A stretch of DNA of 63,337 nt from the NCBI RefSeq assembly GCF_000003605.2, contig NW_003129359.1, positions 464,928-528,264 on the forward strand, given 5' to 3'. Origin of the DNA: Saccoglossus kowalevskii (lineage: Eukaryota; Hemichordata; Enteropneusta; Harrimaniidae). Below the pieces are notes generated by a model, which saw nothing but the letters and a program-made list of their open reading frames with translations, made no database searches and was not told the origin of the DNA. The position numbers and the translations under genes are program-made. Shown here in pieces: positions 392 to 49,740 of the stretch (positions are counted from its first letter, which is position 1; each line of letters opens with the position of its first letter).

Positions 392-477
392 CCATCTATT
401 TGCTATTTAATAGAATGTCAATGGACAAGGTTATAACAGTTACGCTATGCTTTTTATTCTCTTTCACGGCAATGCAG

Positions 478-4860: not shown

Positions 4861-4871
4861 TGAATATAAAC

Positions 4872-7324: not shown

Positions 7325-7349
7325 TCATTAATACTATTCAACACGTGTG

Positions 7350-8207: not shown

Positions 8208-8515
8208 TTAAAGCGCGGTAGTCGTCGCGCTGCGCATGTGCGAGATATATGGGTCTCATATAAACAAAGATGGCGACTTTGAGTGTTGCGCAGATCAACG
8301 AGTACGAACTGAGACGTTTCCAAGCTTTAACTAGGCAATTTTCATGTGATTGGAAGATATCGTAGGTGTCACCGTCGGTAATCAGTGCAAGTCGCGTCCA
8401 GGTCAAACCTCATACTTGTGATTTCCATTTGAAGAACGCATTGGATTGTGGGAAAATCAATGTTTATCAACACAAATGTCGCACATGCGCAGCGCGACAA
8501 CAATGTTATTTTTAA
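8208..8515 (-). mobile_element. MITE family 1 copy (TTAA-flanked, about 300 bp)
   Basis: TTAA lies at both edges. The left end reads AGCGCGGTAGTCGTCGCGC followed by TGCGCATGTGCGA; the right end carries GTCGCACATGCGCAGCGCGA. The interior (containing CTCATACTTGTGATTTCC) is the reverse complement of the copies at 13293-13554 and 16413-16705. The paralogous block in copy 1 (near 3392) shows the same flank, TATTTAA, without the element. Confidence 0.75.
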
Positions 8516-8892
8516 CGGCTTATGAGGCAAAGACTGGATCATTCATACAATAGTGAGCTAGTGTGCATGTGTAGCTGTCACACAAATTTACGGCATTCTT
8601 ATTTACCAGTGCAGTGCGCCGCCTATCGGCTGAGTGGGACATCATATCACAAGTTGAAACTTACATACAAAAAATAATTCATATACAGAATTTCTACGTT
8701 GGCTATTTCAAACACCCCTGCCTAGATGTCTGCTGATTTCATAGTCGCTACTTATTTTACTTTTATTTGTACCGACTTACAGTACTTATGTATTTCTCAA
8801 ATCCTATTTACACAACGCCTTGCCGCAAGCGTCGAGCTTTCTCAACCGCGCGCGTCACGGTGCATCCATCGTTTCCACGCCTACATCATAAC

Positions 8893-10423: not shown

Positions 10424-10493
10424 ATGTGGTCGCTAGGATGTTGGCTTCTTCTTCTCTATTTACCACATTTTATGGTTGTGCTCAGCAAAACAG
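10424..10493 (+). CDS. Gene A exon 1: start codon and signal peptide
   Basis: ATG at 10424 opens MWSLGCWLLLLYLPHFMVVL followed by SKT, a textbook signal peptide with a hydrophobic core, and ends in phase 1 at a GTAACG donor. The next strong exon, 16914, starts in phase 1 and joins to give SKT-DSNHTY. An overlapping ATG at 10438 gives phase 2 and does not fit. The exon is too short to stand out as an ORF. The assignment rests on hydrophobicity and phase only. Confidence 0.6.
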
Positions 10494-16400: not shown

Positions 16401-19400
16401 TAGCATACTACCTTAAAGGACGGTAGTCGTCATTTGTGTTGATAAACACTGCATTTCCCACAATCCAATGCGCTCGTCTTGTGGAAATCACAAGTATGAG
16501 GTTTAACCTGAGCGCGACTCGCACTAATTATTGCCGGTGACTCCGATCCTTCAATACCTTCCAATCACCTGAAAATACCTAATTAAAGCTTGGTAACCTC
16601 TTAGTTTGTACTCGTTGATCTGTGCAACAGTCAAAATCGCCATCTTTGTTTATTTGAGACACATATATCTCGCGCGTGCGTGGCGCGACGACTACCGCCC
16701 TTTAATGTAATATATAAATGCTATAAACACAAAGATTTAGGTTCTTTGAAACGGAATTTTGTAAAATCAAAATGAGAATACATTTGAACCCGTTTTGCTT
16801 GCACTCTAGCAAAATCGTATGATTGTGTGGTAAGACCCAATGCGATCATTGTTTTTTTTTAATATTCATTGGTAAATATACGTCCCTGATTGACTTTGTT
16901 CTTTTATTCACAGATTCGAACCACACCTACTTCAGTGCTACACAGAGCGCAAATACAACAACAAATATAACATTACCTACTTCAACACCGACTCCGTGTC
17001 CGAATCAGACTTTCTATCAATTTCATTCATCCAACAACGTGAGCCAATGCGTCGAGACATGTGGTGACGCGTATGTCGGATATACGTACAATTTCACGTG
17101 TTTGCGGTGTTATGAAGGCTGTACTTCTTGTTTGGAAAAGACAGATGATCTTTCTAGTGTGTGCTTAGCCTGTCAAGACGGGTATTATTTTGATAGGAAT
17201 GGTAGTTCACTAGGTGGCGTGTGCAGAACAAGCTGTTATGATGCTACCTCAGACTCAGAGAAATATACACATGAAGCATCAGCTAAGGTTAGACTCGTGG
17301 ACGGGGAGGATGCTTCTCAAGGACGGTTAGAGTTGTTAGTAGATGGAACGTGGGGTCTGGTCTGTGATGATGGCTGGACATTGGACAATGCTCGCGTTGT
17401 ATGCCGTGAACTTGGGTTCACCGACGCTATGCACTTTTACAAAAGTTCCTACTTTGGTTTGGATCCAAGTAAAGATTTTCTCTTCGATGACGTCAATTGC
17501 ACTGGAAGGGAATCCTCTATATTTCACTGTCAGCATTCTGATCTCTGGGTACACAATTGCCAAAACTCGGAAAACGTTGGTGTATCGTGTAATGGTGCAA
17601 GGCACACTAAACGTTGCCTGGAACGGTGTCCACGAGGAACATTTGAAAACAGAACTTATTGGAGCTGTGACGAGTGTGACAGTAACTGTTTGCTGTGTGA
17701 TAATTCTACTTTTTCGTGTTCTGAGTGTCTGAAACCGTTATTCCTGCAACTCACTGAAAACGGCGGAACTTGTGTTTCAGATTGTGACGACGGGTCGTAT
17801 GGCAACGTTAATACCATGGTGTGTAGTCCTTGTAATTCGAGCTGTGCACAATGTAAACAAGGGCTTCGTGATGATATATGCATTGAATGTGACGAATATC
17901 ATATGCTATTCGATGAATACTGTTACGATTCGTGTCCCCCGGGCACGGTGTACCTGTTGGACGAGAATGATTATTATTACTGTGCCGCAGAATGCCCCGC
18001 TGGGTTGTACCTCACTTCTGATTCCAGCAGCTGTTCAACATGTACCAGTAATTGTGCCACTTGTGTTGGTTCATCTGATAACTGCACCTCGTGTCCACGA
18101 CAGGACCAAGTAATGTACACCTTCGCGACCCTTGCAAGTGGAGCAATAAAGCGACGATGTCAAGAGAGATGTGTCAATGGTTACTTTCCAGACAGGAATC
18201 AGATCTGTCAACCTTGTCAAGATTCCAACTGCATTTCATGTGTCAGAGGAGGGGAACATTGCACAAGCTGCAAAGCAGGCTACATTCTTAATAACTTGCG
18301 ATGTCAAAGGTCTTGCGGCGAAGGGTATTTCAACATCAATGGTAAATGCAACACAGAGTGTAAAACTGGATTCTATGCAGACTTGTTGAATAACCAATGT
18401 AAGAAATGTAAACCCTTGTGCATGGTGTGCAAAGGACCAGACACATGTGCGTCGTGTTTCCCTCCTTACTATAGTTTACAAGGAGAGTGTGTGTTGGATT
18501 GTAGCCCTGACATCGCAGTCAGTTATCCACCGAGCAGCAGAGTAAGACTGATGGGAGGTAGCAACACTTTAGAAGGCAGAGTAGAGGTATATTACGCTGG
18601 TAAGTAAGATAATAATTGTATAATGCAATAGAAAAACAGTGATTTGTAAAATTGAAATTGAAACATCTCTAAGAAACGTATTCATCCCCACTTGACAGTA
18701 TCTCACAATAAACGAACTGACAACAGCCAAAGATGTGTTGCTTAAATCACAACCTAACATACTTTCTAAAATGAATTCACAATAGAAACAACATTCATAT
18801 AGCTTTGTAAAATAAAACGTCTGAATACATAATCTGCGTTATATTTCCCTTTTACAAAGTAATAGGTTAAGGACACGTTTTAAGTTAATTAGACGCCACG
18901 ACTCCCCTACTTTGATTAATAATTACTGGCAAGCAAACATCATTCGCAATCTACAATTGTAATTGTATTTCTAAGTGTGATTGATGTACACATTATTAGA
19001 AATACCTAATTATAGTTTCTGAGTATATTGTTTGAACTTTAGGTCAATGTTGAGAAGGTCGTTATTAGTAGTAGAAATTCTGCCGATCAAGTCGACATGA
19101 CTTGCCATCTTTTTCCGAGTACGGGTTTTGTCACATCTTAGTCTTTGCTCACGTGTAAAGCAGATGAATGTCTATTAAGCGACTCTGTTTTATTGATACA
19201 ACAATTTCATCTGCATGATAAGTATACATTTTTCTTGACTGAATTTGTCTAAAATTAATGATAGATTTCACTATAATTATTTTGTCTACCCAGTTTGAGA
19301 AATTGTATGTTCCCTGTCCGCGAAGAATACACTTCCCACTTCATCCTCGTCGTCAAAGTCATGCAATAGGATTCATAACACTATATAATGGGCATAACAC

Positions 19401-22400: not shown

Positions 22401-25400
22401 TGGATTTCGGCATTCCTATAATGTATCCTTGGGAGGAAAAGATATATAATAATAAGATTATTGTACTGCCTTCGTGGATACTTTTCGGTATCCTCGTAGT
22501 AATCATCATTTTCGTTCATAGTCGCATCTGTAATTGTTCCACAGTCAAAATCAGACGACTCGGCAAATACGGAAATTGGAAAGAGTAAAATTATAACCAT
22601 CTATTTTGTTATACAGTGTGACAGAAGGCAAAATTCAAGGCAGAGATGTATGAAGCATGAAAAGCAGAGCACATATTGTATTATTCAAAATCTCAAGTTC
22701 AACTAGATATATAGTTGGAAGATAAACACAAAATTTAGGATTTTTTAATGAAAGTACATCGTCAATATATCTGAATCTGAAAGAAATACGACTTAGCATT
22801 TTTCGCATTTGCAAGATGAGGGCGCTATACATCATGTCGTCACGTCCTGTTTGGTGACTTATGTGTCATTGTCATATTAAAATAGTTATGCTTACAACGT
22901 GTGTATCGTCGATAATAACTTTTAAAAACTCCTAAACGCAAAACGTCTCTTAGTATATCAAAAGGTTGTTGGGTAATTTTCTTGATGTTTGTGTCGCTGT
23001 TAGTGTGTTATTCGAAGTAAACTAGCGTGCGTGTAACCAGTTCATAGACGTCAAATGCCCTTCATTTTGCTTCAATGCGATCATTATTTCGAAACTGTGC
23101 TGCTAAGTGTCTATGCCTATTCAAAACATTTCTATAAAAGCATAAATTCGATTAAAGCTTGAAGGCGTGTATAAGTGTGGGCAAAAGGTGTACGTGCCTG
23201 TCGACGACCTGCTGCAGTTAGATGTTTAATGCTACGCATTACAAACCATGAATGGTCGCTGAGATGAGTTAAGTATTCTTATAACAATTATTGAAATGAA
23301 GAGTTAAGACCGTAATGTAAAATAGTGCAGAAATAATAAAAGGGACCCGTCCCAGGAGTAGAAAATCGTATTAACCGGTCAGGTTATTAAGTCATTAAGT
23401 ACTCTCACAAAACGGTGGCCTCCAAATTGTAATTACTCCATAGAAACGTTACTGCTTTCCAAACACATGGAACGTTAGCTTTTATCTGTACCTCCACTCC
23501 TATTATTCTTGTTGGAATTATTTAATTCAAAATTTAGACAAACAGGTGACTCACTCTTTTTTATATTTTGTATCATTTCGTCGAATTTCATTTACATATT
23601 ACATTAATTAAGTTAGGCTTGCATTGTGCATATTGACACAAGTTTACATTCATTGTATTCAGATTTACAAGAAATATAATATTAATTAAAAGGTCATGGT
23701 TTTCATTCAATGGTGTTACCATCTTGTTGCTTGAACACGCATGTAAATTGACGTAAAGGTCAAAAACAGGAACTGAATGATATCACAAAAAAAGATTGTG
23801 ACATTTTGTGTGAAATGATTAGAAACTATAATTTATCTACTAGTATAAACGTTGAATTGATTAGTACCATGCCCATAAAATCACTCTCAAACAACAAAAT
23901 AACGCAAGTTTCTATTTATTTTGTCAACATCGCATGAATTCATTCATATTCTTAGAGGCCAAAATACATAAAACCACATATAAACACGGGTAAAATCACT
24001 TCCACTATGCCGATATATCGAGTGTGCTCAGTAGAACCGCCACAATGTTGAATTAATTGTGTTGTCAGAAGCAATAATATTTATTAAAAGTACCACACAG
24101 AGAAAGCCAAAGATCATTCTTCATTAGATCAGCTGTTTCGATATATTGCAAATATTGCTCGGCGATTCCAATAAATATTGCCCCTGGATAAATACATTAC
24201 ATGTCAACTATGACTGATGGTATGTATGTATGTATATGTGGGCATAGCGAAATTGTGTTGTTTAATATACCAGTACCGTCGTCTAACCACCCTAATAGAC
24301 AGCGTATCCCGGTAATGTAAGGCAATAATATTACTAGATAATTACTCAGTTTCAATCACAAATTATTGCAAACTGTGTGATTGATTGGATAAAATATATG
24401 AAAAGCGCACTGTTCTGGTTCAGTAGTTAGCGGAAATTAAACTACCACATTTAAGCTAGGAAAAGAGAAAGTGAATATCTGATACAATTTCAGTTTAATC
24501 AACAGACATTTGTAACTTCTACTATTTCAATTAATGAACGGTGCTAGACTGCAAAGTATTACGATCGAATTGAATTTCTTTCTGCTTCAGTATTATTCGA
24601 AACAAGTAAAATACTGAGGTGAAGAATATTTTAGATTTCCTATTCATTTTAATTTACGCGTGGTTGCCCTGATACCAAATAAAAAAAAAGTGTTTCGTTT
24701 ACCGAATTATACATCAGATATAATAAAAACATCGTCGTTCGTGCAGAGATTATAAATCTTTGGTACATTCCAATTGATTTATTATTTCGGAAGTTGAAAA
24801 ACGTTGATGTACATTCCACATAATATAGTATGCAGTGACTGAAAAATGTAAACTAAACATTGACTCTATTTTGTAGGTGTATGGGGACCTATATGCGCAT
24901 TCAACTGGCAGTACAATGCCGCCAATGTTGTTTGTAAGGAACTTCAACTGGGAATAGTTATTGAGGTTAGTCGTATTACATGTTTTTCAATGGACGAGTG
25001 AACTTCATATATCATTTGTGTTTAGTGATAAAACAACTGCGCATGTCCACAATCATTAAAACAGTTCAGAAGTAAGTGGCTCCCTGTTATTTTAAGCGTT
25101 AAAGCGATGGAGTTGTCACTTGCGCATGCGTCAAACGGACATAGCGTGCCGTTCACAAACACATAAGTCTTTGCGTTTTTAGCGTGCGTTGTTATCGTTG
25201 CGTGGGACTCAGTTTCCGCGCGTGCGCAGGTGACAACCCTCCCGCTTTAAATAAACAGTACCTCAATGACTAAGAGAATGTTTACTTGTTAGTCCCGTGG
25301 TGGTAGCGTATAGTGGAGGATATCGAGATTTATCACGGGTGTGTGATTTTCCATGCAGGTGCTACAGACCAACGTGTTTGGAAAGAGTGACATGAAACCG

Positions 25401-37400: not shown

Positions 37401-40400
37401 ATAGTAGTGTACGTAGTAGCCGTGTAATTCTAAAATAAATTCAAGTCCTAATCGTTTAAGCATAATGCTACTGACCCCACTAAACCCCACCTAGAAGCTG
37501 GTTATTAATACTCTAAATATAACATATTATTGTTGAAATGCAGATCTTCACTGCTTGGCTATTATCGCCAATTTTTCGTCATCGGGGATTTACATCCCGA
37601 GTTATGGTTACCTTGGCGTCTAACCTATCTAACCACTGAGAAGAATTTGCTTTCACTAAAAACTATTAAAATTTTGTGCAAAATCGGTTGTTTTTTTCGC
37701 TTGGAACGGAAAATGCAAAAGGCGAAACGACTTAATTTTCAAGGACGCGCGTCGCTTGGATCGGAGGTTTTTTTTTGTTCCCATTTACTATGTCTATAAA
37801 CGTTGTTTTTATTTCTATATGCCAATTTTCACAATATTTTCATTGAAGGACGCCCGTGAAAAGATTCTTCAACTCTATAAAATTTGACAATGGAACAACT
37901 GTAAGAATAGCTTTCCCGTTCAGCGTAATTACAAAATAGATGTCAATGAATACAATATTTGCAAAACAACAAATAAACAATTCCTGCACCCCCATAGGCA
38001 ATTGAACCAATTCAAACAATCTAGCTCTTAACTTTAGATTTAGTTACTAGAATTTCCGCCCGATGCTGGAATGATTCAAAAATGTTTAACTATGGCATTT
38101 TGCAAATTATGTAATAAATTCTCTTACGAATATTTGATAGGTATTTTCCTGGGTATGTACTAAACTCTGTACACCTATTATAATTATCAAAACTTCAAAT
38201 GCGAACTTCGTACACATGCAAAGTCAATACAATTAATTACAAGTAATTTTGGATTTGTTGAAAATGAGGCAAAATGCTGTTACACGGAATATAATAGATG
38301 ATGAGAATTACAAAGCGGATATAATGTAAAATATTTTCGCGAATATCACTGTTAATATCATAATACCATTATTTGAGTAGATTCACGATGTTTAATATTA
38401 TAATTTAAACCATAATGAAATCAAAAGTTATCTTTCTATTGATTAAGTTTAAATCATTGTACCATACCAGCGTAACGTCTCCACACCAGCATGTGAGTTA
38501 ATACAATGTAGCTTGATTTCGTTTTTCTTTTGATAATGAGTTCTGACTGCTGCAATTTACCCGATTACGGTATCGTGTGTTTACACGGATATAGGTCAGG
38601 TTAGGCTTGAGAAACAAGTGTCAATCTATACGTGACAAGCCATATTGCTCGATCGAATGTCTAAACTTCGTGAGCTGAATAGGCTGTCTTAAAACGTTTG
38701 CTTTGACAATCGCATCAAACTTGTATAGCGCAGTTCAGTGTACTAGTTTACTGGGTTTCCAGCAGCGAATTCGATTAGATTGACAGTGTATCGGTACATT
38801 ACCTCGTTTAATAAGATTGTGCAACGTTGCATTTGTAGGAATATAATGAAATATATCTTAACCTATTTTCAGTTGTGATAGCTCTATTGCCTGTATATTT
38901 TACGGCTTTTATTGTTTTAATTTCGTATTTTTTTATTTTTTATTTTTTACTATTTTTGTTATTATCTTTTTTTCCTGTTATTATATATGTTATAAAGGAG
39001 CGGAACTATTCACAAAATCAAATCATTCGATTTTGCTGCAGACGTTCAGTCTACACCTTTCACACATTACGCAAGAGCTCCGTCGCAGAGAGCGGGAAAT
39101 CACTTATATGATAGAATGCTTGGATCGTACAGAGAGTTACAATCCATATTTATTTTATTGTAACGCCGAATGTATAATTACGGGTAACCATAGCAATACG
39201 TATCAGACTACCTAAACAACATCAATGTATCATGCAAGATTAGAACATGGGGAATTCATGGAACAACAAGAAGTTACGAAAACATTTAAATTCTGCGTAA
39301 TGGTTTGATGCAAGAAGGAATTAGGAACTATGACGCTTATGCTATTGGCTGACAGAGAAATAGGGTTTCCACGAAATACGGCCTCGGGCACGTCACTCAT
39401 TATGTACACTCAAATAAAACCTCTCATGCAATGTAAATAACCAATTTGAAAATATGAAATTATTGTTAATCGAAATGGTGAATCTTTTTTAAGCGTCACT
39501 GACCTCTGGTAGAATAATATTTTTGTCCGTATTTTATAAAATTTCTTTTCCAAAGAATTGAAGATTACACTTTGGCATATAGAGCTGATTGTTACTTAAT
39601 ATTTACAATTTTAAAGACTATTTTGCGTTTTTATTCTCATAATCAGTGTTATTGTGTGTCTGTGTGCTGACTGGGAGTGATAGAACAGTTTTTAACGTGG
39701 CTTTAGCTCTATTGGTTCAATTTAAAGCAAACCTAATTATGCTTTTAACCTTTCAAAACCAACATCTCCCCATTACTGCTAATCATATTTGACGCGAAAT
39801 GAACTGTATAAAGCGGAGTTACAAATAGCAAACTTCTTTTCAATTCGTGAGTGAGTTTCTGAAAATGTAATTTCTAGTACTACTGTGTTCCCACTTTGTC
39901 ATCGTTCTCAACCAGGAAACTATTTTCCTCTTGTTATTAGGAAGACGAAAATTCCACTTCCTAACAACAACCTTCAGAACACAATACATACATAATTAGA
40001 CACCGTTAATATTGGGTATATTATGTTACCTTGGCTACCAATAATACCTAAATATATTGAACTTGATTTATCGTTTGATTCATTCCGTTCATGGTTATTA
40101 TGGATGACTTCAAGTTGGTTTTTGCTCTAATTTCATCGAATAAGGTACACACCTTGTTTATACAGTACATTTAATTTTTTTTCGCGTGAGGACTATTGTT
40201 GCACTTGTTGATGTTGGTAGCTAATTACAGTGGAAATAAAGCTACCCATTAAGCCGTGGAAGTGTTGACGTCATTTGCATATTTGCATATGAATAAGTCA
40301 ACCAAATCGTCGGTGTTATAGATTGCCACGCACTGTAGGATAAAGGGGCAAATTCAGCGTGAACAAAGAATAGTAAATCCCAGTGGATGCAGTCTTAATC

Positions 40401-43400
40401 AGGGCTATAAAACCTATTTCCTGCTATAACTGTCCATTACCAGGGACTCTGAGATCACGTGGTGCGTTGGCAATTCAATTTCCTTTAACGTTGTAGGCCT
40501 GCTAATTTGCTTCTCAAAAGCTGACTACGTCAACGATGATTTCTCTCTATATATTCCTATCCATAGTTCAATGGACACCGATTTGGCTGCTTATGCCACT
40601 TTAGTTTTGGACACTTTGCCGACAAGCGTCGTGGTCGGTGATGGAGAAGTCTACTCTAGTTTAAAACTACAGGTGAGTTCTTGTTTCAGCATCCGCCGCA
40701 TGTAAATACACACCTATTTGTACGCACGCTATTTGATGTTAGCTTGCAGAACTGTTATTTGGCCCGTTACAGTGGGACTTCATTAATACCTCTTAATCAT
40801 AGCTAGCTAATAAGGCATATCGTAGCGCTATTTTTTCAGCAAGGTGTGAAACGTGTTATCAAACGCAAGTTGAAATATTAACGATAACAAGAAACAGTCA
40901 ATGCGCAATTAAAGTGTATTATTTTATAATATTTTGTTCAGTAAATATGAACGACGAACAAGCAATGTGTATTATCGACACAACTTGCAGCAATACGGCC
41001 GTATGATACCATGTAGATATATATATGCAGTCTGACAACATACGGGGTAGAACATAGATTATATAGACACAGACTAATTAACACTGTACTCGGACTACAT
41101 ACGATACTTACGACGTGAAACACATACTAACTAACGAAATTGTAGCTAGCAGGTCGTGTAGGTCATTTCATTCTGATCGTCGTAAAGCACTAATGCATAT
41201 ATTATCATAGGCAGCTAGACATCAATAGCCAAAGTTGTTATAATTTGTTTGTAACGTAATTTCACATGGAAGAAAACAAGTTACGGTGTGTTTAGTGCTC
41301 AGAATACTGTACCAAATACCGTATCGACGAAACTCGATGTAAACCTGTCATTCTAATTTCTTTCGCCAGCTATATGACATTAACTCCCGAATTATATATG
41401 GAAAAGAACAGTTAAAGAACGGCAGTCGTCACGCCGCGTCCTGTTGGATATGGAACTCATAGCGACGTATACAACGCGTGTAAAATACATAGTTTATTTA
41501 CATGTAATTCGAATACGCGCTGCGCGATGACCACCGCGCTTTAATATATATGTAGTTTAGATTGTTCTAGACGCTTTATGTAATATGTATTCATCAAAAC
41601 GTTTACGTTTTATATATCACCAATGAACATGTAACGTTGGCAATAAATTGCCAATAAAGCCCAGGGGAGTGCTTAACGAAGACTGAACATCCGACGTGAT
41701 TTATTCACGGGTTTATTACTTCATTTAACTTGATCAGAATGTAATCAAAAAATTGGCGAATTGAATGGGAAGATTGCCTACCTTGTCGTATATGTTTAAA
41801 ACAACTTGGAGGATGATTTAAGACAACAATATCAAAACTTTAACGTTGTCCCTTACTTTGGAGTTTTGAAACGCGCAAATTTGATCAGGGCTTGTGTATT
41901 TTGCTGTTCATCTTTTTGATTCAATGTGTAGTTTATCACTAATGGGTGTTCTTCTAAATTTCGATATTTTAATAATGTATAGTGTTTGCTAGTTGACAAA
42001 ATCCACTTTGTATTATCTACGTCTTATTAACTTCGCTAGGCATTAGCATTCCTGTTTAAAAATTTAAGTACTTTCAAATTTCAGATTTAAATTTACCCAT
42101 TTATATATAATCAGATCATTCAAGTCATGTCACGCACTACGTTGTGTTATTGCGGACATTTTATCAACTATAATGAAAATATATTGTACATTAAAGTTTT
42201 TATTTCCTTGGTCAGCGAAATACAAGGTGTAGTTAAATCTGAACTTAAAGTAAATTCGCTGTCACATTGCATTATCCGTGAAGAAGCTGAAACGAGTTGA
42301 GATTATTTGTGATAACAAAAGACGCTATTCACTCTGTCAATATGACATTATAAGCAGGTATGGCAAGTGACATTAAGTAGCGCTGAAAACGTTGGTGGCA
42401 TTTTACATCCACTAAAATAAGTGACTTGTCTATTATTCTCTAAATTGTCCACCCAGTTATTATTTTTTTCTCGGATTCAAATTCAAAGTATCGCCAGACA
42501 ATGCACTTCATGACTTCCGGATGTGGGTGCAACCGGAGGGCAGTACAATTCTTCATATACTCCAATTTTGGCATACGATTATTAGAATCAAATTAAAAGT
42601 ACATGTATACTTGTAAACAAGTGGGATTATGTCGAACACCATTTGTAAAAACCTGAAATTATCTGCTGATGTGACATTGATCAGAATAAAAATGGTTTGG
42701 TACATGTCAAGGATAACAATCGTCTATGTAAAATCGACACGAAAAACAATCATTCTCATCAGTAGCTTATCTGTATGTATGACAGGTCGATGACATTATC
42801 CAGCGAAATCTAAACATCTAACAATACTAAAAACTATGGCAACAAAACAAACATGTTCATCATCATCATTATATATGTATACTATTTACCATCTACACAT
42901 ACTACCGGTATGGATATGCATACACGTATTTTCACTTATGTTTTTTTTAGCTAGGAATCACAATTACTAAATATACTTAAATTATTAGTATCACTGTTAG
43001 TCTGGGCGATTAATAACACCCCACTGTTTGGCAAAACTATTTAGTTCAGATCTCGATTTTTCTAGTTAACATGAAAACGTACCTTTTGAGAAGGATCGAT
43101 ATTTCGACTCAAGGTTGTATTAAAATATATTTAATAGAGTATTGTGTGTCTTCTGTTCGTGTATGTTAGCATTGTCGTGTTTAGACTAATCAGAAACCAC
43201 ATGTAGATAACATTAAAGGGGGCGCAGAAATCTACCGAATTACATGCATTCAGTCTTATCAAATTGACTCACAATATTTACTCTAGTTTTCCCTTCGTAT
43301 TTTTTCGCGCTTTCGGTTTTACACAAGCCCACTTATTATCTGACTGTCTGATGAATATACGTTGAATTTACCCATATTCAGAATATCCAGGGTGCCACAA

Positions 43401-46400
43401 TGCGTTATCGGCTCACTAATCAATGGTTTGTACTTGTGATATTCAACGTTGTTTAAAACGTATATCAATGAATCTACCTAGAGCGAGTTAATAACCCAGG
43501 GTAGGGCCAGGGGCATATTTTGTCTCTCAATCAATCCACATTATACATGACAAAAGATGCCCCATGCTAACATCTTGACAATTCGTCCAATTTATTACTT
43601 CGTAGATTTGAAAAGGTTGATACACATAACGCAAATTGATGTACTGTGTTTACCCCCTATAGCGCAGGTTATATAAACATATTTCGATTTATCGGCTTTG
43701 ATAGCTCTAACCTTGAAATCTGGCTGATGAATTATGTAATATTCAATATTGATTTCACGTCAATTCGCTGAGCAATATATTTTGTAAGAAGACATCGAGA
43801 TCCACGAATACTGTTATTACCTTGTGTTCGTATATTCTACACCTGTAGACGACGAATACACGTATGGTGTCTTTATCGTCGTACAAAACACTCTTAACTT
43901 AATTCAATGTGTTGATCTGCCGCAGGTGAATGTTACAAACTGGCCGTTGAAATACAACCAATGGTATCTGGTATTTCTTAAAATCACTGAAGTGAAAGAT
44001 TACGTGGATACTGGTAAAGTTATCGCAGCGTCTCTCTATCAGACCGTTCATATTATACCTAAAATGCCGCCAACAACGTTGCCCCCGGTCGTTACAGGTG
44101 AGTGTGACGTCAGAGTGGATTATTTTATTGGGTTCAATTTAGACAGTAATTCATATTTCAATTCATATTCATATTTATTAAAGATAACCAGGTTGACCTT
44201 GAAGTATGCGTGGCAGACTATATCTGCACCCTAACTATGGAAATTCATATATATGGCATTATATCGTATATTAGTCGCCACTGAGAATCTATAGGATTGA
44301 CAGACTAGCGTTTTTACTACACCAGAACTATTATTCACCCAATAAACTCTTTGTATTCATGCCAATTCCACCCATCTTTTGTAAGTATTATTAGTGAAAT
44401 ACAAACTCACGAGTATAACAATAACCTTCTATTATTGCATTTGTTCGTAGATTCCCGTGATAATGGCAGTGGATATTCAACACATTTCTCAGGTACTCAT
44501 TTCCCATAGCAATTTCAATATCATTGTGTAGTGGCTCGTCAACGCACTATGTGAACATTATGATTTTGCATGCTTTATTGTAAATTTGTGTTCGCTATGT
44601 TTTGTTGCTTCGTAAGCTCCCCTTCAATGCATGATTGTTAACCAGAGTGCCTCACCCCTAGGCGACACGAAATGTTTTTTTTTCTAAATATATAATTTAA
44701 GTGGTAAAAATAAAATTCTGTTCTTTCGTTACTGATTATTTACCATATACAGCAACAGTTGTCATTGGGCGTTACGTAACACTAACTACTGTCAATTTCT
44801 AGAAGTATGACAAAATGCACATATATAGATGTTAACTTACTCCAACCTGTCATGTCTACCACAGATATCACAAATTGCACTGATTGTACAAATCACACAG
44901 AATTGACAACATTATCGGATCCGGTCGACTTCAGTACTACAATTACTGAGAACACGACAGGGACACCACCGAGTGTCACTGTAATGAACAGTTCCAGTGA
45001 CGTAACGAGTAACACAGTGGGTGGCAACGTTTCTGAAAATTTAGATTATTTCACACTTACGCGTGCAACTGTGGTGCCGTCAAACTCAACAGGATCGGTA
45101 AATGGGATGAATGCAACCACAATGACTAACGATGTCACATCTCCCATAGCAACCGAAACGTCCCCAAGCCTTGTCAGTTATAGCAGTACAACTGTGGACC
45201 AACAAACTACAGGTACCAGTACATCGTCGTTATCCGGCAGTACTGCCTTAGAATTAACAACCGACGGGCGTAGTACATCAGCGACCACAATCACAAGTAC
45301 AAATACGGTATCCTTCGACAGTTCAACGAAAACTGAAACAGGTAGTTACGGTACTTCAGTGGTAACTGATACATTAGTCACTGATTCCAGCTTAGCTTTG
45401 ACGTCTAACGTCTACGCTGTGTCTACAGTGTCTGATGATATATCAACCAGCGTACATATACAGACAAATGAACCACCAACAACAGTAAGATCGGAACGTA
45501 CCTCTAATCAGTACCCAACTACTCTACTTGGGTATGAATCAACATCGACTGAGATCAGCCCAACTTACCCAACCTCCCCAGTCACCCAGCTGGATATTTC
45601 CACGGGTTATGTAAATGACACCGGCATGACCACCGTGTCATCGGGAAATAACATTAATTCAACAGACTTTGAGAATGCTACCGAATATGTGACTTTCAAT
45701 ACGACGACAACTGCGTATAATGAGACCACAACCAGATACCCCGAGGAATACACCACAGATCGCCCGACTACAGTGTTTAACCGCAGCAATTCTACTACGG
45801 AGTTTGTTACTGATACTGGCAGTCAAATTAATACAACAAGTGATACAACGACGTTAACACAGGATCACATCACTCCAATACTTAACACAACCGATGAAAA
45901 TAATTGGACAGATATGTCAACTGAGCTGGCAGGAAGGAATACATCAATAGACTCGTCGGCAACCGAACAAACTGATATCAACACTAACATCCAAAGTAAT
46001 CAAAGTTTGAACAGCGATGTGCCAACAACGCCTGTCTTATCAACTGACCAAGTATTATCTAACTTTACTGATTGGCAATCGATTAATAACACGACTGGAG
46101 ATTCTACGTTGTCCACCAGCGATTCAATAGCTCCAACAACTGAGTCAACTTTGAATTCCACTGAACTCCGGGATTCTACAACACTGTTGACGGAAAACGC
46201 TGAATGCGTGTGCCCTGTGACGGTACAAGTAATGACTGACTGCTACGAACAGGACAACAATACGGCGGCAGGTACGTCGAGATTCTTTATTATGCTTCGT
46301 CGGTTTTCTCCAGGGAGTTGATGTGATCCATGTTTTGTGTGTTGCGCTCGTTGAATGACTATCAGACTCAGAATAGTTCATCAATATATATTCATTGAAC

Positions 46401-49400
46401 TTCAACGTGTAATGTTGCATTGAAATTAGGATTGTGGCTTACTCGGTGTTGCATCATTTGTCCGTTTTTTTTATAATGTATTATTATATAATTGCACGTA
46501 GACGTTATAACCTGTCTTAGCATAAATTGTATTGTTTTTAATGGTGCGACAAGTCTACATTGTAACATGATTGCACCTCCATATCGATAATCGTGTCACG
46601 TGTACTTATTTTAACGTATAAATACATAGATCGTATCATTTGCTTTCATTCTCGACAGGTACATTTGGATCACTCGGTAAATACGAGATAATAGCACTGC
46701 TCTCTGGGGTATCAGCACTGGTAATCATATTACTGGCTTTAATTGCAACATGTCTATATGTCGTGGTCTATCAAAGACGTCGAATACGAGATCATGATCC
46801 TCATACAGGGAATGCTGGAGATACCCTCATCAATGGAAATACAGTGTAAGTACAGTATTCCATTAAAGCGGAGGAGTCGTCACCTGCGCATGCGTCAGAT
46901 GGCCATAGCGTGTCATTGTTTACAAATAAGCGTCTACCCATGAGCCTTTGCGTTTTTAGCGTGTGTTGTTGTCGTCGCTTGGAACTCAATTCGCGTTCAA
47001 TTCATGCTGCAAGGTTATCGTAGCATTCGTTTTGAATTGTACATTTTTTGCCCAAATCAACAGCATTGAGTGGGGGAAAATAACATTCTAACAAATGTCA
47101 TTTCTTTAATAACATTGATTATATGTATTTTTTAAATGTATAGAAATCAGGAAGTGAGAGACGAATTTGACAATCCTGCAATGGAGAATTCCGACTTGTC
47201 CAGCCAGCCTAGTTTTATGTCTCGTGTAAACACCAAGACAACAAGTGATGTATATCTACCACCGCCGCCTTTTCATAATGCATATGACAACGCAGGTAAT
47301 TTTTCACAGTGCTTATCCCCCTTGACATCACGTCCACCAAATGTCAGAGTCGCGTACGGTAGGGGACTTATGCCTGTTGTAGGTATTCTAAAATGAACAC
47401 ATTCAAAATTATTTGCAAATTTGGACATAACGAAAAAAAAAGTTTTATTTTAAGCCAGTTTATCGGCGAAACAGTATGTGTGACGGGGTTTTCGCATTCT
47501 ATACTATTAGTATATTCGACAATAGCTGTGCGTGTATGTTCTGTGCCATCTGGCATTGTGACAGTAATTGCGAATTCCGGATCTCTAATTGTCACTTTCG
47601 GGTAATACCGGAGATAACGCATGGTGTATTGATATTTGCTCAATGCAGCTTGTCGCGTTATCTCCTGTATTAGCCGCGAATAACCCCTTAATACCGCTCT
47701 TGAGAAGATTGGTTTATTCTTACATTGTAGGCGATCATGATGAAGAATTAAAAGAAGATTGCAACCTAGATACTGCGTTTTCTCTTAAAGAAAGATCCCT
47801 AAATCCTGACGATGCTCTGGAAGAGATTATTCTACAAGCAGATACCACCGAAATAAGTGATGTGGTGATGGGTTCCTCTAGTTTTAAACGATATAGAGCT
47901 GTAATTGTCACATATTCGGGGGATCATAATGACGAGGAATATTTTAATAAAACGCAGTTGAACAAAGAAAACTCGGATATAACATGTGCTACAACGTCCG
48001 CTGGCATTTTTAAAGATACGAGTGGTACACATGATACTAATTCAACAAAGGCAATATTTTCACAAAACTGTGACATATCCATTTATCGCAAAATCGATGA
48101 CAATATAGACATATCCGAGTCTTGTCAAAAAAAAATCGAACCTGATGTCGTAAACCATGACACCAGTAGTAATGTTAAATCTCCAAGTGCAACTAACAGC
48201 GTCAACTGCTGTGAACATACATCTGCAAATGAAACTTCAGATACAGAAAAAGCTATTCATGAAACCGCCTTTGAGTGTAATTTGAATGTATGTGGGCATC
48301 ACCAACACCATCAGTTAGAAGCGACGGACATACGAGAGGAGGTAGAAAGTAACGACGTCACCATTACGACTTTAAATTACCCAACAATCATATCTGCGCT
48401 TGAAGAGAATTTTTCTTGCGATACGAATTTGTCACGCACGCACCCCGAGTCGAGTGCCCATGCAATGCATGAAACCAATTCTAAGAAACACGGAGATACG
48501 TATGACGACAAACATGTTATGCTGAAAGACATAAAGAATAAAGCCAGGAATTTACTTGGGAGACTACTCCATAGGAACGACGGTAGGCCTGACATAGAAA
48601 CAGACTCTGCAAATAGCCATCCAGTTTCTAGTAAGCATGACAACCTAAGTGTTCAGAGAGCAGAGGAAATTGACGATTATGCCATATATATCGACCCACT
48701 GATGGTCAGTGCGTATAAACAACAAGAACACGAAGGTGACAGTGCGTATCAATCTCGTGAAGCTCGCAGAAACAAAACTGATGTTTCTGAAGAAATCATC
48801 CACGTACATAATAGGGAAACAATGCCTTCATTCAAACCTGAAATGCATGCAAATGTACACAGTGACAAAGTCGAGTATAACGAGATTCAGACTGGTGCAG
48901 TGAGCTCTGTTGTCAAGTTTCTTGAACATAAGGGACGTGAAGAACAGCAAAATACATGGAAGGTGGGGAAAAAGAAAACATCGGTAGTCGAGGAGCCTCT
49001 TTATATAGAATTCGACCCAGCCTTGAATCCACCATATGTACCATTAGGTGGGACTGTACCAGTATACCCCGATGAAATCAACGATTCTGGTTTCATCATC
49101 ACACCAGAAGGAACAGATGATGAGATGGAAGTTGGTGACGAGAATAACCAAGCTAAAGTAAAGGTAAACTAATTTGGGACTATTAAACAATCTTAAACCT
49201 GAGAAATGCATATGTATTTACCCAACTATGTCATAATTGAAAATATTGTTTTGTTATGTTACAGGTTACCTTCATTCCAAAAGTGAAACCACCGTTGCCA
49301 GCTCCGAGAAGCATCCTACAAGAAATGTCATCTTCCGCGCTTGATTCAGTCAGGTACTTTTTCGGTGATGTCATGGAGAACAGATCGGTGTTGCCTGGAA

Positions 49401-49726
49401 ACCAGAAAAACATTAACATGGAAACACGATGGGACAGCAGTTTGTTTGGAAAAAACTATGGCAACAGTAGTTTTCTTTTCGGTAGCAACGTTACCGGCGT
49501 AGCGAATCCACTCCCGCCTAGTTTCGATGAAGAACGTACCGAGAACGCCGATGAAAACACATCCGCAAAAAATGAGGATCATGGTGATTTGCTGGGGAAA
49601 GAAAAACTAAAACCAAAAGATTCTGGTTTCGGAGAGGTGTCTTCCGAACAGAACGATTTCACTCAAATTGTTGAGGAATATACTCCAAGAAAGTTAACAA
49701 TCCCCAGTGTGTTTTTGCAGGCATAG
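10424..49726 (+). CDS. Gene A: giant chimeric SRCR / furin-like / Ig / FN3 / mucin transmembrane receptor (multi-exon gene model)
   Basis: I reconstruct about 24 exons by joining GT-AG sites of matching phase. Domains in order: signal peptide (residues 1-22), furin-like Cys-rich repeats flanking SRCR1 (about 50-560, SRCR1 148-249), SRCR2 (566-675), EGF-like (690-739), five Ig domains (740-1192), RPTP-like FN3 (1193-1381), Thr/Ser mucin stalk (1396-1864), one membrane helix (about 1875-1900), and an acidic, disordered cytoplasmic tail to about 2607. Module borders are almost all phase 1, as in exon-shuffled receptors. No kinase, phosphatase, TIR or death domain is seen. By architecture it is a cell-surface recognition or adhesion receptor; ligand and signalling partners are unknown. 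One junction (40672 to 43849) is out of phase and may hide a micro-exon or an indel. The exons could in principle belong to two adjacent genes, but the unbroken phase chain argues for one. Individual exons are listed separately. Confidence 0.75.
13293..13554 (+). mobile_element. MITE family 1 copy
   Basis: TTAA flanks both ends. The left end is ATGGCGGCTGTCGTCGCGC plus TGCGCATGTGCGA; the right end is GCATGCGCGGCGCGGCGACT plus ACCACCC before TTAA. The interior shares GATTTTCCCACAATCCAATG and AGTATGAGGTTTGACCT with the other two copies. Confidence 0.75.
14917..15108. repeat. (AAATAT)n microsatellite, about 190 bp
   Basis: Near-perfect 6-bp repeats of AAATAT run through this block, with short interruptions in the first 80 bases. 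The apparent Ile-Tyr and Ile-Phe ORFs on the minus strand are products of the repeat and are not genes. Confidence 0.9.
16413..16705 (+). mobile_element. MITE family 1 copy next to gene A exon 2
   Basis: TTAA-flanked, starting AGGACGGTAGTCGTC and ending GGCGCGACGACTACCGCCC. The interior carries the family signature (CCACAATCCAATG, CACAAGTATGAGGTT, GTTTGTACTCGTTGATCTG). It lies about 200 bp upstream of the exon 2 acceptor. Confidence 0.75.
16914..18599 (+). CDS. Gene A exon 2: furin-like cysteine-rich repeats around SRCR domain 1, start of SRCR domain 2
   Basis: A single 1,686-bp exon enters in phase 1 after TTATTCACAG and leaves in phase 1 at GTAAGT. It begins with a Thr/Ser-rich glycosylation-prone linker, then a furin-like repeat (CLRCYEGCTSC), then a full SRCR domain: KVRLVDGEDASQGRLELL, GTWGLVCDDGWTLDNARVVC, and a C-terminal HNCQNSENVGVSC. 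Then come six or so furin-like CxxC repeats, for example CDECDSNCLLC, CSPCNSSCAQC, CSTCTSNCATC, CKKCKPLCMVC. The last residues (RVRLMGGSNTLEGRVEVY) open SRCR2. SRCR domains bind polyanionic or microbial ligands in scavenger receptors; furin-like repeats occur in growth-factor-binding receptors and R-spondins. Both domain calls are strong; function is inferred. Confidence 0.9.
19380..20490. repeat. 27-bp minisatellite with 54-bp higher-order unit
   Basis: Successive copies of GTAGACATAACACC plus CACTGT-TAGRT units have a 27-bp period. In the core (about 19660-20230) two variants, with CACACTGTCTAGGT and CTCACTGTTTAGAT, alternate and give a 54-bp dimer. The edges (19380-19620 and 20240-20490) are more degenerate. 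Because 27 is a multiple of three, several strands and frames read as long Cys/His/Leu-rich ORFs, which are not genes. Confidence 0.9.
21205..21254. other. Assembly gap (50 N)
   Basis: A run of exactly 50 undetermined bases. The true gap length may differ. Confidence 1.
24877..26808 (+). CDS. Gene A exons 3-5: SRCR domain 2 completion and EGF-like segment
   Basis: Exon 3 (24877-24965) reads GVWGPICAFNWQYNAANVVC then KELQLGIVIE, the middle of an SRCR domain. Exon 4 (25359-25508) reads VLQTNVFGKSDMKPLAAQFS, then WDCLNDVPTPHIYDC. Exon 5 ends the domain with IAGVRC; I prefer a start at 26589, which gives near-normal cysteine spacing, with 26577 as the alternative behind a better pyrimidine tract. 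Exon 5 then encodes CFVGVECHQYPV and CDPCPLDYVGDGRVC, an EGF-like pattern as in thrombospondin-type proteins, and leaves in phase 1 at 26808. SRCR2 is more divergent than SRCR1 and is split by two phase-0 introns, whereas SRCR1 is intronless. Confidence 0.8.
25099..25250 (+). mobile_element. MITE family 3 copy (TTAA-flanked, about 150 bp)
   Basis: TTAA at both ends. The left end is AGCGATGGAGTTGTCACTTG plus CGCATGCGTC; the right end is GCGCAGGTGACAACCCTCCC plus GCT. The interior carries TTTGCGTTTTTAGCGTG, the family hallmark. It sits between gene A exons 3 and 4. Confidence 0.8.
25780..25845. repeat. Interspersed repeat fragment shared with 54960-55025
   Basis: ACTGTACCATGTATTTACAA plus GGGCTCTGTGTGAGCTGC here aligns with ACTGTACCAAGTATTTATAC plus GCGCTCTGTGCGAGCTGC downstream. 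The element type is not recognised. Confidence 0.55.
27833..28829 (+). CDS. Gene A exons 6-7: Ig domain 1
   Basis: Exon 6 (27833-28001) enters in phase 1 and encodes GPPEIIYPRGDV, LTLLCSVQKYTSITWYKD, the B-strand Cys and C-strand Trp of an I-set Ig fold. Exon 7 (28708-28829) joins in phase 2 and encodes SSSGLYTCVASNLNGQS, the Y-x-C motif. It ends in phase 1 at a GTAAGA donor. Ig domains of this type mediate protein-protein contacts outside the cell. The intron between the two halves carries two MITE copies in opposite orientation. Confidence 0.85.
28050..28201 (+). mobile_element. MITE family 3 copy, intron of Ig domain 1
   Basis: It starts at TTAAAGGGAAAGGGGGGGTC followed by ACCTGCGCATGCGGCC and contains GCCTTTGCGTTTTTAGCGTG. 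The right end is degenerate (GTGCGTAGGTGACGCTCC) with TTAG instead of TTAA. Confidence 0.75.
28514..28652 (-). mobile_element. MITE family 3 copy, reverse orientation
   Basis: TTAA-flanked and inverted relative to the previous copy: CCCAAGCGACGATAACAACA, CTAAAAACGCAAAGGCTC and GCGCAGGTGACGACTCCCCC before GCTTTAA. The left end has lost part of its inverted repeat. It ends about 55 bp before exon 7. Confidence 0.8.
29156..29618 (+). CDS. Gene A exons 8-9: Ig domain 2
   Basis: Exon 8 (29156-29287) encodes EPIVITKPPDTQIGVSG, ITLTCGHIGSPTPNVTWLKD, and exon 9 (29478-29618) encodes LRLTVTGSLLITGDRGEDSG then DYSCKVEN. All borders are phase 1. It has the canonical Cys-Trp-Cys pattern of an I-set Ig domain. 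Confidence 0.88.
29917..30559 (+). CDS. Gene A exons 10-11: Ig domain 3
   Basis: Exon 10 (29917-30068) encodes KPVIKPAFPNNIVIM, LEIPCDTTGAPEPILYWKKN; exon 11 (30439-30559) joins in phase 0 and encodes SMADMQITDSGMFTCFVNNQ. Both cysteines and the Trp are present. It ends in phase 1 at GTATGT. A short degenerate inverted-repeat element starting GTGGCGGATTTAG lies in the intron at about 30307-30410. Confidence 0.88.
30757..30786. repeat. (AAAT)n microsatellite
   Basis: A short perfect run of AAATAAATAAATAAATAAAT lies in the intron between Ig domains 3 and 4. Confidence 0.8.
30975..33673 (+). CDS. Gene A exons 12-13: Ig domain 4
   Basis: Exon 12 (30975-31123) encodes VEPVVMAATVDN, NITVVCRVSIHDLSTVTWFK; exon 13 (33565-33673) joins in phase 0 and encodes FSLSLLDVKENDAGVYTCVA then SNPIGQ. 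The canonical cysteines are present, and the domain is slightly short. The 2.4-kb intron holds two MITEs (32574-32706, 32821-32986). Confidence 0.85.
32574..32706 (+). mobile_element. MITE family 2 copy (TTAA-flanked, about 130 bp)
   Basis: Left end AGCGCGGTGGTCGTCGCGC, right end GCGACACGACGACTGCCACC, with TTAA at both edges. The interior GTCGCTATGAGTCCCATATC is shared with copies at 41412-41544 and 53091-53216. Confidence 0.8.
32821..32986 (-). mobile_element. MITE family 3 copy
   Basis: TTAA-flanked; carries AGTCCCAAGCGACGATAACA, ACGCAAAGGCTGATGGG and GCGCAGGTGACGACTCCCCC in the reverse orientation. It ends with CCGCTTTAA. Confidence 0.8.
34085..35233 (+). CDS. Gene A exons 14-15: Ig domain 5 lacking both canonical cysteines
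   Basis: Exon 14 (34085-34222) encodes VPPRFIIAPQNETVLANFPA, VLLYDVYGLPAPDITWTTQG; exon 15 (35108-35233) joins in phase 1 and encodes FTITPSWLQFVPSYPNDTGQ then YTVSANNSEGVLEV. The C-strand Trp and the D-x-G-x-Y signature are kept, but the B-strand Cys is Tyr and the F-strand Cys is Val (Y-T-V instead of Y-x-C). Both losses together suggest a stable disulphide-free Ig fold rather than decay. The donor of exon 14 is embedded in a minisatellite. Confidence 0.8.
34211..34675. repeat. About 28-32-bp minisatellite starting at the exon 14 splice donor
   Basis: Units of the form GCACCCTGGTATATATGCAA plus ATTATGTT, with variants CCCTGGGTGAGTATGTAAAT, repeat about 15 times. The first unit is the end of exon 14 and its donor (CACCCTG-GTGAGC). 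Several units keep a GGTGAGTATG donor-like core. Confidence 0.85.
35580..44097 (+). CDS. Gene A exons 16-18: FN3-like region resembling the membrane-proximal ectodomain of receptor tyrosine phosphatases
   Basis: Exon 16 (35580-35790) encodes FTVSFEDIFC and VYQLIVVDLPEGYT; exon 17 (40567-40672) encodes DLAAYATLVLDTLP and SVVVGDGEVYSSLKL; exon 18 (43849-44097) encodes DEYTYGVFIVVQNT and QWYLVFLKITEVKD. The order Y-Q-x-I-V-V, then A-A-Y-x-T, then V-G-D-G-x-x-Y, then Y-x-x-x-F matches the juxtamembrane FN3-type region of type IIa/IIb receptor phosphatases. No phosphatase domain follows. Exon 16 leaves and exon 17 enters in phase 2, but exon 17 appears to leave in phase 0 (CAG-GTGAGT) while exon 18 must be entered in phase 1. 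The exons are reliable; the join between 17 and 18 is not. Confidence 0.7.
35791..40566 (+). other. Gene A intron 16 (about 4.8 kb)
   Basis: No exon candidate that fits phase is visible. A poly-C run lies near 36170, a pyrimidine-rich run near 38930-38980, and an ORF at 37530-37799 has no recognised motif. Two overlapping ATTTGCAT octamer-like sites occur near 40275. Confidence 0.45.
40673..43848 (+). other. Gene A intron 17 (about 3.2 kb)
   Basis: Apart from a MITE family 2 copy at 41412-41544, nothing is recognised. A small exon of 3n+1 bases is expected here if the flanking splice sites are right, but I could not identify it. Confidence 0.45.
41412..41544 (-). mobile_element. MITE family 2 copy
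   Basis: TTAA-flanked. Left end AGAACGGCAGTCGTCACGCC, right end TGCGCGATGACCACCGCGCT. The interior GATATGGAACTCATAGCGAC is the reverse complement of the copy at 32574-32706. Confidence 0.8.
44451..46271 (+). CDS. Gene A exons 19-20: linker and Thr/Ser-rich mucin-like stalk
   Basis: Exon 19 (44451-44492) is a 42-bp phase 1-1 linker (DSRDNGSGYSTHFSG). Exon 20 (44865-46271) enters after TCTACCACAG in phase 1 and encodes 469 residues dominated by Thr, Ser and Asn, with many N-x-S/T sites (for example NCTDCTNHTELTT, ENTTGTPPS). It ends with a Cys-containing segment (ECVCPVTVQVMTDCYEQ). The composition predicts a heavily O- and N-glycosylated rigid stalk that lifts the globular domains off the membrane. 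Unlike vertebrate mucins, it has no tandem repeat. The ATG at 44807 that would make a longer ORF lies in the intron and is not the start. Confidence 0.85.
46659..46845 (+). CDS. Gene A exon 21: transmembrane helix and stop-transfer
   Basis: The exon encodes SLGKYEIIALLSGVSALVII then LLALIATCLYVVVYQRRRIR, one hydrophobic helix followed by a basic stop-transfer cluster. This fixes type I topology with the C-terminus in the cytoplasm. It enters in phase 1 and leaves in phase 2 at GTAAGT. Confidence 0.9.
46863..46996 (+). mobile_element. MITE family 3 copy, 3' truncated
   Basis: It starts at TTAAAGCGGAGGAGTCGTCA followed by CCTGCGCATGCGTCAGATGG and contains TTTGCGTTTTTAGCGTG and GTCGTCGCTTGGAACTC. 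The right inverted repeat is missing. It starts 18 bp after the exon 21 donor. Confidence 0.75.
47144..49726 (+). CDS. Gene A exons 22-24: cytoplasmic tail and stop codon
   Basis: Exon 22 (47144-47295), exon 23 (47731-49163) and exon 24 (49265-49726) join in phases 1 and 0 and encode about 680 residues, ending PSVFLQA and TAG. The tail is acidic, rich in Asp, Glu, Asn and Ser, and looks disordered. Possible adaptor-docking tyrosines sit in YLPPPPFHNAYDN, DDYAIYIDPLMVSAY, EPLYIEFDP and EEYTPRK; YLPPPP could also bind SH3 domains. No enzymatic domain is visible, and no perfect ITIM or ITAM was found. The large ORF extending upstream of 47731 is intronic and is not coding. Confidence 0.85.
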
Positions 49727-49734
49727 AACATTTC

Positions 49735-49740
49735 AATAAA
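49735..49740 (+). terminator. Polyadenylation signal of gene A
   Basis: AATAAA lies 8 bases after the stop codon of gene A. A 3' end so close to the stop is short but usable; later AATAAA-like sites exist (for example near 50010). Confidence 0.5.

What the first reader, a model, noticed from the sequence alone, without database searches (positions are those of the whole stretch)
10424..49726. A single receptor combining SRCR, furin-like, EGF, Ig, RPTP-like FN3 and mucin modules with a non-enzymatic tail
Seen: a chain of exons in matching phase encoding these modules, one membrane helix and a 700-residue tail. Known: SRCR proteins, Ig adhesion molecules and RPTPs are separate families in vertebrates. 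Inference: this is a lineage-specific chimeric recognition receptor whose ectodomain joins pattern-recognition and adhesion modules, and whose juxtamembrane region may derive from a receptor phosphatase that lost its catalytic half.
Basis: partly seen in the sequence, partly recalled or inferred. Interest (0 to 1): 0.8.

Follow-up and report, generated by a model that had tools for sequence, protein, structure and literature searches.

The report
Chimeric SRCR, furin-like, immunoglobulin membrane receptor
This stretch of an animal genome very probably encodes one large cell-surface protein that joins scavenger-receptor, furin-like and immunoglobulin modules on a sugar-rich stalk with a long non-enzymatic tail, a new arrangement of parts that invertebrates are already known to mix.

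Summary
The core observation holds. A phase-consistent chain of 23 exons (10424-49726, + strand, 2,598 residues) encodes a signal peptide, furin-like repeats, SRCR1, more furin-like repeats, SRCR2, a small cysteine-rich module, five Ig domains, a 190-residue membrane-proximal region, a Ser/Thr-rich stalk, one membrane helix and a 700-residue tail. Pfam confirms SRCR (twice), furin-like and five Ig, but not EGF or FN3. The RPTP label is weak: no Pfam or PDB match, no signal against PTPRM, a modest one against a PTPRD segment (6 of 2,000 shuffles), and only self-matches in the 572-Mb genome. None of 47 phosphatase-domain matches lies on this contig. SRCR1 keeps all six cation-site residues of SALSA/DMBT1; SRCR2 keeps none. 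Best reading: a cation-dependent ligand-capturing adhesion receptor that signals or traffics through tail motifs. SRCR combined with Ig and FN3 is already described in invertebrates (PMC7308585), so this is a new variant of a known kind. There is no transcript evidence, exon borders are partly hand-set, and lineage specificity could not be tested.

The parts
10424..10493 (+). exon 1: start codon and signal peptide, ends in phase 1
16914..18599 (+). exon 2: furin-like repeats, SRCR1 (residues about 148-252), furin-like repeats, first strands of SRCR2
   Evidence: Pfam SRCR 1.2e-26, Furin-like_2 3.6e-16; PDB CD163 and, weaker, R-spondin-2
24877..24965 (+). exon 3: SRCR2, second part
   Evidence: Pfam SRCR on the spliced piece 3.2e-20
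25359..25508 (+). exon 4: SRCR2, third part
26577..26808 (+). exon 5: end of SRCR2 and a small cysteine-rich module with a thrombospondin-EGF-like cysteine pattern (recalled resemblance)
   Evidence: no Pfam match for the EGF-like part
27833..28829 (+). Ig domain 1, exons 27833-28001 and 28708-28829
   Evidence: Pfam I-set, five stretches, 4.9e-60; Cys pair 775/821
29156..29618 (+). Ig domain 2, exons 29156-29287 and 29478-29618
   Evidence: the second exon was missed by the generic model
29917..30559 (+). Ig domain 3, exons 29917-30068 and 30439-30559
30975..33673 (+). Ig domain 4, exons 30975-31123 and 33565-33673
   Evidence: end of the second exon set by hand
34085..35233 (+). Ig domain 5, exons 34085-34222 and 35108-35233; no cysteines
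   Evidence: end of the second exon set by hand
35580..44097 (+). membrane-proximal 190-residue region, exons 35580-35825, 40521-40672, 43926-44097; FN3/RPTP resemblance by eye, no HMM support
   Evidence: no Pfam or RPTP PDB hit; PTPRD segment z 4.2, PTPRM z 0.12; only self-matches in the genome
44865..46271 (+). mucin-like Ser/Thr-rich stalk exon
   Evidence: 39% S+T, 24 NxS/T sequons
46659..46845 (+). exon with the single membrane helix and the basic stop-transfer stretch
   Evidence: hydropathy 2.77 over 21 residues; phase 1 in, phase 2 out; borders combined by hand
47144..47295 (+). tail exon 1, contains PPPPF
47731..49163 (+). tail exon 2: acidic, three ITIM-like tyrosines (motif starts 2084, 2182, 2348), NPPY (2400)
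   Evidence: single copy in the genome; no Pfam
49265..49726 (+). tail exon 3 and stop codon; one class I SH3-type motif (2451)
   Evidence: only a sub-threshold Pfam match

Best explanation
A single-pass receptor of an animal, probably an invertebrate. Shown from the DNA: one consistent gene model with a secreted-type start, scavenger-receptor (SRCR) and furin-like modules at the tip, five Ig domains, a Ser/Thr-rich stalk with many glycosylation sequons, a membrane helix and a 700-residue tail without a recognisable enzyme domain. Inferred mechanism: SRCR1, which keeps the complete dual cation site, captures ligand in a Ca2+/Mg2+-dependent way (microbial polyanions, matrix or a cell-surface protein); SRCR2, which has lost that site, is a spacer; the Ig array adds protein-protein adhesion; the mucin-like stalk holds the head away from the membrane; on clustering or engagement, tail tyrosines and short linear motifs (three ITIM-like, one NPxY-type, SH3/EVH1-type) recruit cytoplasmic partners or drive endocytosis. 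It therefore works as a scavenging or adhesion receptor that borrows enzymes instead of carrying one.
For: Gene model and phases. Domains. Cation site: SALSA SRCR8 uses D1019, D1020, D1058, D1059, N1081, E1086 (PMC7043408 passages); by my mapping on the alignments (to CD163) and by spacing, SRCR1 has D175, D176, D215, D216, N238, E243 (6 of 6 identical), SRCR2 has A593, F594, A632, Q633, D658, G663 (0 of 6 identical; Q633 and D658 are of a tolerated kind). Both SRCR domains keep six cysteines (group A definition recalled). Tail motifs: ITIM-like 3 against 0.98 expected (23 of 500 shuffles reach 3), NPxY 1 against 0.09 (40 of 500), PPxxF 1 against 0.06 (29 of 500). No enzyme domain over a cut-off. 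No phosphatase match on the contig.
Against: No RNA evidence; everything rests on ab initio exon calls partly set by hand, which independent codon models reproduced exactly for only 4-12 of 23 exons. Tail-motif enrichments are nominal and 15 motifs were tried, so they may be chance; no ortholog was available to show their conservation. The ligand is unknown. The single-sequence structure prediction of exon 2 failed (mean pLDDT 34.2) and adds nothing; the tail was not predicted.
Confidence: 0.55

Rival explanations
1. Two or more genes were run together: an SRCR/furin secreted or membrane protein at the 5' end and an Ig adhesion receptor at the 3' end.
For: No transcripts. Introns of 6.4, 6.3, 4.7 and 3.3 kb exist. 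A second locus with SRCR-furin-SRCR order occurs elsewhere in this genome, so that block can occur in another gene.
Against: SRCR2 itself spans exons 2-5, bridging the second-longest intron; the same exon ends SRCR2 and begins the next module; the junction to Ig1 is in phase 1 like the other module junctions (9 of 9; one of them with hand-set borders). No second signal-peptide exon was recognised before Ig1, but I searched for one systematically only in 5000-16850.
Confidence: 0.15
2. A receptor tyrosine phosphatase that lost its catalytic domains.
For: A motif-level likeness of exons 17-18 to the membrane-proximal part of PTPRD (score 39, shuffles 22.9 +/- 3.9, 6 of 2000 reach it) and the by-eye pattern GDG..Y...N.PL....Y.
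Against: No signal against PTPRM (z 0.12, 859 of 2000 shuffles reach it, and other parts of the same protein score higher), no Pfam or PDB match, no tblastn match better than E 0.11 upstream of phosphatase exons on 14 of 17 contigs, only self-matches in the genome, no phosphatase match in the tail or in six frames of the flanks. PTPRM and PTPRD segments themselves match only at E 0.66-0.84, so distant kinship cannot be excluded.
Confidence: 0.12
3. A Robo-like or IgSF9/Turtle-like five-Ig guidance receptor with an SRCR-furin head added.
For: Five Ig domains followed by one FN3-like region (by eye), a helix and a long tail (family layouts recalled); the best of 211 PDB hits of the Ig block (60 shown) is Robo2 (7.7e-47).
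Against: DSCAM, sidekick-1, titin and neurofascin follow at 5.7e-39 to 1.6e-36, so the hit may be generic; FN3 repeats are not found by Pfam.
Confidence: 0.1

Closest known systems
Invertebrate modular SRCR receptors (cnidarian, placozoan, ctenophore and other repertoires; passages of PMC5119243, PMC6321704, PMC11797021, PMC7308585)
   Same: SRCR combined with Ig and other extracellular modules in one chain
   Different: in the passages read I saw no protein with this whole order (furin-SRCR-furin-SRCR-Ig5-stalk-helix-long tail); [quoted passage not shown]
CD163 and SALSA/DMBT1 SRCR proteins
   Same: SRCR fold; SRCR1 retains the dual cation ligand site
   Different: they are SRCR arrays without an Ig array or furin-like repeats (recalled)
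Robo and other I-set adhesion receptors (DSCAM, sidekick, neurofascin, contactin)
   Same: tandem I-set Ig ectodomain
   Different: no FN3 repeats found by Pfam; SRCR and furin-like head added
LAR-type and MAM-type receptor phosphatases (PTPRD, PTPRM)
   Same: possible weak likeness of the membrane-proximal region to PTPRD
   Different: no phosphatase domain; no profile match; no likeness to PTPRM
SRCR-furin-SRCR locus on contig C354 of the same genome (L006, L008)
   Same: SRCR followed by furin-like CxxC repeats and another SRCR
   Different: 34% identity over query residues 220-341; SRCR introns at other positions and phases by reading; its continuation could not be read

Membership tests
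SRCR superfamily | SRCR domain over the curated threshold | tested here: met
   Pfam PF00530 93.3 and 72.8 bits, cut-off 26.1
SRCR superfamily, group A | six conserved cysteines (definition recalled) | tested here: met
   six cysteines in each of SRCR1 and SRCR2 by reading the domains printed
Immunoglobulin superfamily, I-set | tandem I-set domains | tested here: met
   PF07679 five stretches, 4.9e-60; four of five domains have the Cys pair
Furin-like repeat proteins | furin-like cysteine-rich repeat over threshold | tested here: met
   PF15913 59.7 bits, cut-off 28; 18 CxxC in the two blocks
Receptor protein tyrosine phosphatases | cytoplasmic PTP domain | tested here: not met
   no Pfam match in the tail or, at E<=0.01, in six frames of 49729-63337; none of 47 scored genome matches on this contig
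Receptor protein tyrosine phosphatases | RPTP-type membrane-proximal FN3 region | tested here: inconclusive
Robo | five Ig and three FN3 domains, conserved tail motifs (recalled) | tested here: not met
   five Ig met; no FN3 by Pfam; tail motifs of Robo not tested
EGF-domain proteins | EGF-like domain by profile | tested here: not met
   no Pfam EGF match for exon 5
ITIM-bearing inhibitory receptors | cytoplasmic ITIMs that recruit SH2 phosphatases when phosphorylated (recalled) | tested here: inconclusive
   three matches to the pattern, 0.98 expected, 23 of 500 shuffles; phosphorylation and binding not testable here

The most novel reading that the evidence does not exclude
A chimeric recognition receptor in which a scavenger-type, cation-dependent capture head sits on an Ig adhesion array, the membrane-proximal part descends from a LAR-type receptor phosphatase, and the lost catalytic half has been replaced by an ITIM-bearing tail that recruits phosphatases in trans.
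Probability: 0.08. Interest if true: 0.65.

Novelty: new variant of a known kind. Interest (0 to 1): 0.36.

Why it matters
If expressed as modelled, it links scavenger-type ligand capture and Ig adhesion in one chain with a tail that occurs once in this genome. It gives a concrete case of how animals assemble recognition receptors by phase-1 exon shuffling, with a testable head (SRCR1 cation site intact, SRCR2 lost).

Tried and rejected
Tried without gain: PDB search of the membrane-proximal region (one irrelevant hit at E 0.51; none); AlphaFold2 of exon 2 from its sequence alone (mean pLDDT 34.2, so no fold search was made); the tail was never predicted (not accepted, not tried again); tail in viral contigs (1 stretch matched a pattern, no relative) and exon 2 in genome contigs (11 stretches matched, no relative); Rfam and tRNA scans (nothing). 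Papers: searches returned no paper; one returned two coronavirus papers; 35 ten papers; 41 two papers (a neuromuscular-junction review and PMC5094078); 51 one paper on cilia; 57 eight listed of 40; 79 three, of which I saw only the listing. Only the passages shown were read of PMC5119243, PMC6321704, PMC11797021, PMC4284660, PMC7308585 and PMC7043408; the other papers were seen as listings only.

Considered and rejected: extra exons inside the long introns (introns 1, 2, 12, 16 and 17 scanned in all three + frames, no Pfam domain); the downstream LDLa exons as part of this gene (they follow the stop codon and belong to an extracellular-type protein); SRCR2 as a broken domain (all six cysteines kept). 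I looked whether SRCR2 introns match those of the C354 locus; they do not.

Full report
What was checked. The window is part of a 572,110,611-base genome in 4,830 unnamed contigs (window = C2108:464928-528264); its spliced genes and domains are those of an animal. A small dynamic-programming gene finder written here, followed by hand inspection of splice sites and frames, gives 23 exons from 10424 to 49726 on the + strand, 7,797 coding bases, 2,598 residues, one terminal stop, all 22 introns GT-AG. Real sequence scores far above chance (101 against 8.6-21.4 for 12 dinucleotide shuffles and 15.7 for the reverse strand, region 18600-50500, codon model trained on exon 2 alone). Exact exon borders are less certain: models not trained on the whole gene recovered 4, 9 or 12 of 23 exons exactly, with 11, 16 and 11 further predictions sharing one border and 19, 42 and 10 with no counterpart.

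Architecture. Signal peptide; furin-like repeats; SRCR1; furin-like repeats; SRCR2; a small cysteine-rich module; five Ig domains; a 190-residue membrane-proximal region; a 470-residue stalk with 39% Ser+Thr and 24 N-glycosylation sequons; one membrane helix; a tail of 708 residues with net charge -54. Nine of nine junctions between ectodomain modules (introns 1, 5, 7, 9, 11, 13, 15, 18 and 19) are phase 1, the classic sign of exon shuffling. At intron 15 I set both borders by hand with phase 1 in view, the finder having preferred phase 2 there; at introns 13 and 19 I moved a border without changing the phase. PMC4284660 (passages) describes the same 1-1 phase bias for shuffled domain exons in lancelets. 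SRCR1 lies inside one 1,686-base exon while SRCR2 is spread over four. Ig5 has lost both cysteines.

What the domain libraries say. Pfam: SRCR 1.2e-26 and 3.2e-20, Furin-like_2 3.6e-16, I-set 4.9e-60 in five stretches; nothing for the membrane-proximal region with the limit at E 10 (HMMER's filters drop most matches above about 0.1); nothing for the EGF-like module, and nothing over a cut-off for the stalk, helix or tail exons (sub-threshold matches such as PF09307 at 0.0011-0.0029 on the helix). PDB by sequence: CD163 for both SRCR domains, R-spondin-2 for the furin-like part (7e-5), Robo2 first of 211 Ig proteins, 60 shown (7.7e-47).

The RPTP question. By eye, exons 17-18 carry a GDG..Y......N.PL.....Y pattern like the membrane-proximal FN3 region of receptor phosphatases. 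A PTPRM segment (recalled, confirmed) gives an alignment no better than shuffles (z 0.12; 859 of 2,000 reach it; other parts of the same protein score higher); a PTPRD segment gives z 4.2, reached by 6 of 2,000 shuffles, and the two best-scoring windows of the protein are those over this region. That PTPRD segment came to light through its own match to PTPRM, and the two barely match each other (E 0.66 and 0.84), so absence of a significant match is weak evidence. Twenty segments upstream of phosphatase-domain exons, on 14 of the 17 contigs with such matches, gave no tblastn match better than E 0.11 and no match to the pattern (upstream exons may lie farther away). The region matches only its own three exons in the whole genome (3 of 3 candidates). 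I therefore leave the RPTP origin open but unlikely on present evidence.

No enzyme. Flanks 1-10423 and 49729-63337 were scanned in six frames at E<=0.01: only LDL-receptor class A exons downstream. Introns 1, 2, 12, 16 and 17 were scanned in the three + frames: nothing. Of 47 phosphatase-domain matches in the genome (61 candidates scored, a lower bound), none is on this contig; kinases were covered only by the Pfam scans named. The main tail exon occurs once in the genome (1 match of 3 candidates).

How it may work. PMC7043408 (passages) defines the dual cation site of SALSA SRCR8 (D1019, D1020, D1058, D1059, N1081, E1086), reports that D1019A and D1020A abolish ligand binding, and argues the site is general to SRCR domains. 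SRCR1 here has all six at near-identical spacing (D175, D176, D215, D216, N238, E243); SRCR2 has none identical (A593, F594, A632, Q633, D658, G663). This mapping is my reading of the alignments to CD163 and the coordinates. So the first SRCR is the likely ligand head. The tail holds three ITIM-like tyrosines (0.98 expected; 23 of 500 shuffles reach 3), one NPPY (40 of 500), one PPPPF (29 of 500) and one class I SH3 motif (88 of 500); 15 patterns were tried, so none would stand after correction. Mechanism beyond capture is inference.

Known context. PMC7308585 (passages) states that invertebrate SRCR domains occur with immunoglobulin, collagen, LDL receptor and fibronectin type III domains; PMC5119243 reports cnidarian proteins with several SRCR and several Ig domains; PMC6321704 counts more than 20 domain types in placozoan scavenger receptors; PMC11797021 mentions scavenger receptors with Ig in a ctenophore. 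In this genome 51 SRCR exon matches were scored (76 candidates); exon 2 has 21 matches including itself (44 candidates), of which one locus, on C354, also shares the furin-like part and shows an SRCR-furin-SRCR order, with introns at other positions. The full order seen here did not turn up in the listings of searches or in the passages read, which cover open-licence papers only; that is no proof that it is undescribed.

Verdict. It is a new variant of the known class of modular invertebrate SRCR receptors.

Noticed in passing
window 34215-34677: A 28-base minisatellite (about 16 copies) begins in the last 8 bases of exon 14 and repeats its splice donor: 25 donor-like sites scoring over 1.0, the original included, four others at 5.9 or more. 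15 of the 25 are out of frame; the donor 84 bases on could extend the exon in frame without a stop.
   Followed up: partly
window 51795-62818: Downstream + strand gene or genes with LDL-receptor class A exons (51977-52099, 52234-52347, 60340-60453) and exons with CC..D.CN-type endings that look like Ly6/uPAR three-finger domains (recalled resemblance).
   Followed up: partly
window 19660-20489: 27-base tandem repeat, about 31 copies with a 54-base higher-order unit, inside intron 2, with long open stretches in all three + frames; a shorter related array lies at 19397-19459.
   Followed up: no
window 25140-25219, 28092-28185, 28519-28652, 32838-32978, 46863-46995: Dispersed copies of a short repeat, 82-93% alike in the better-matched pairs, in both orientations within introns of this gene; perhaps a SINE-like element.
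   Followed up: no
L006 and L008 (G000 contig C354): A second SRCR-furin-like-SRCR locus in the same genome; its continuation could not be read.
   Followed up: partly
L002, L003 (C1362, C2597) and L005, L007 (C4776): Other SRCR loci: proteins resembling Bark beetle/Anakonda and a lysyl-oxidase-like gene (names recalled from the translated sequence).
   Followed up: no
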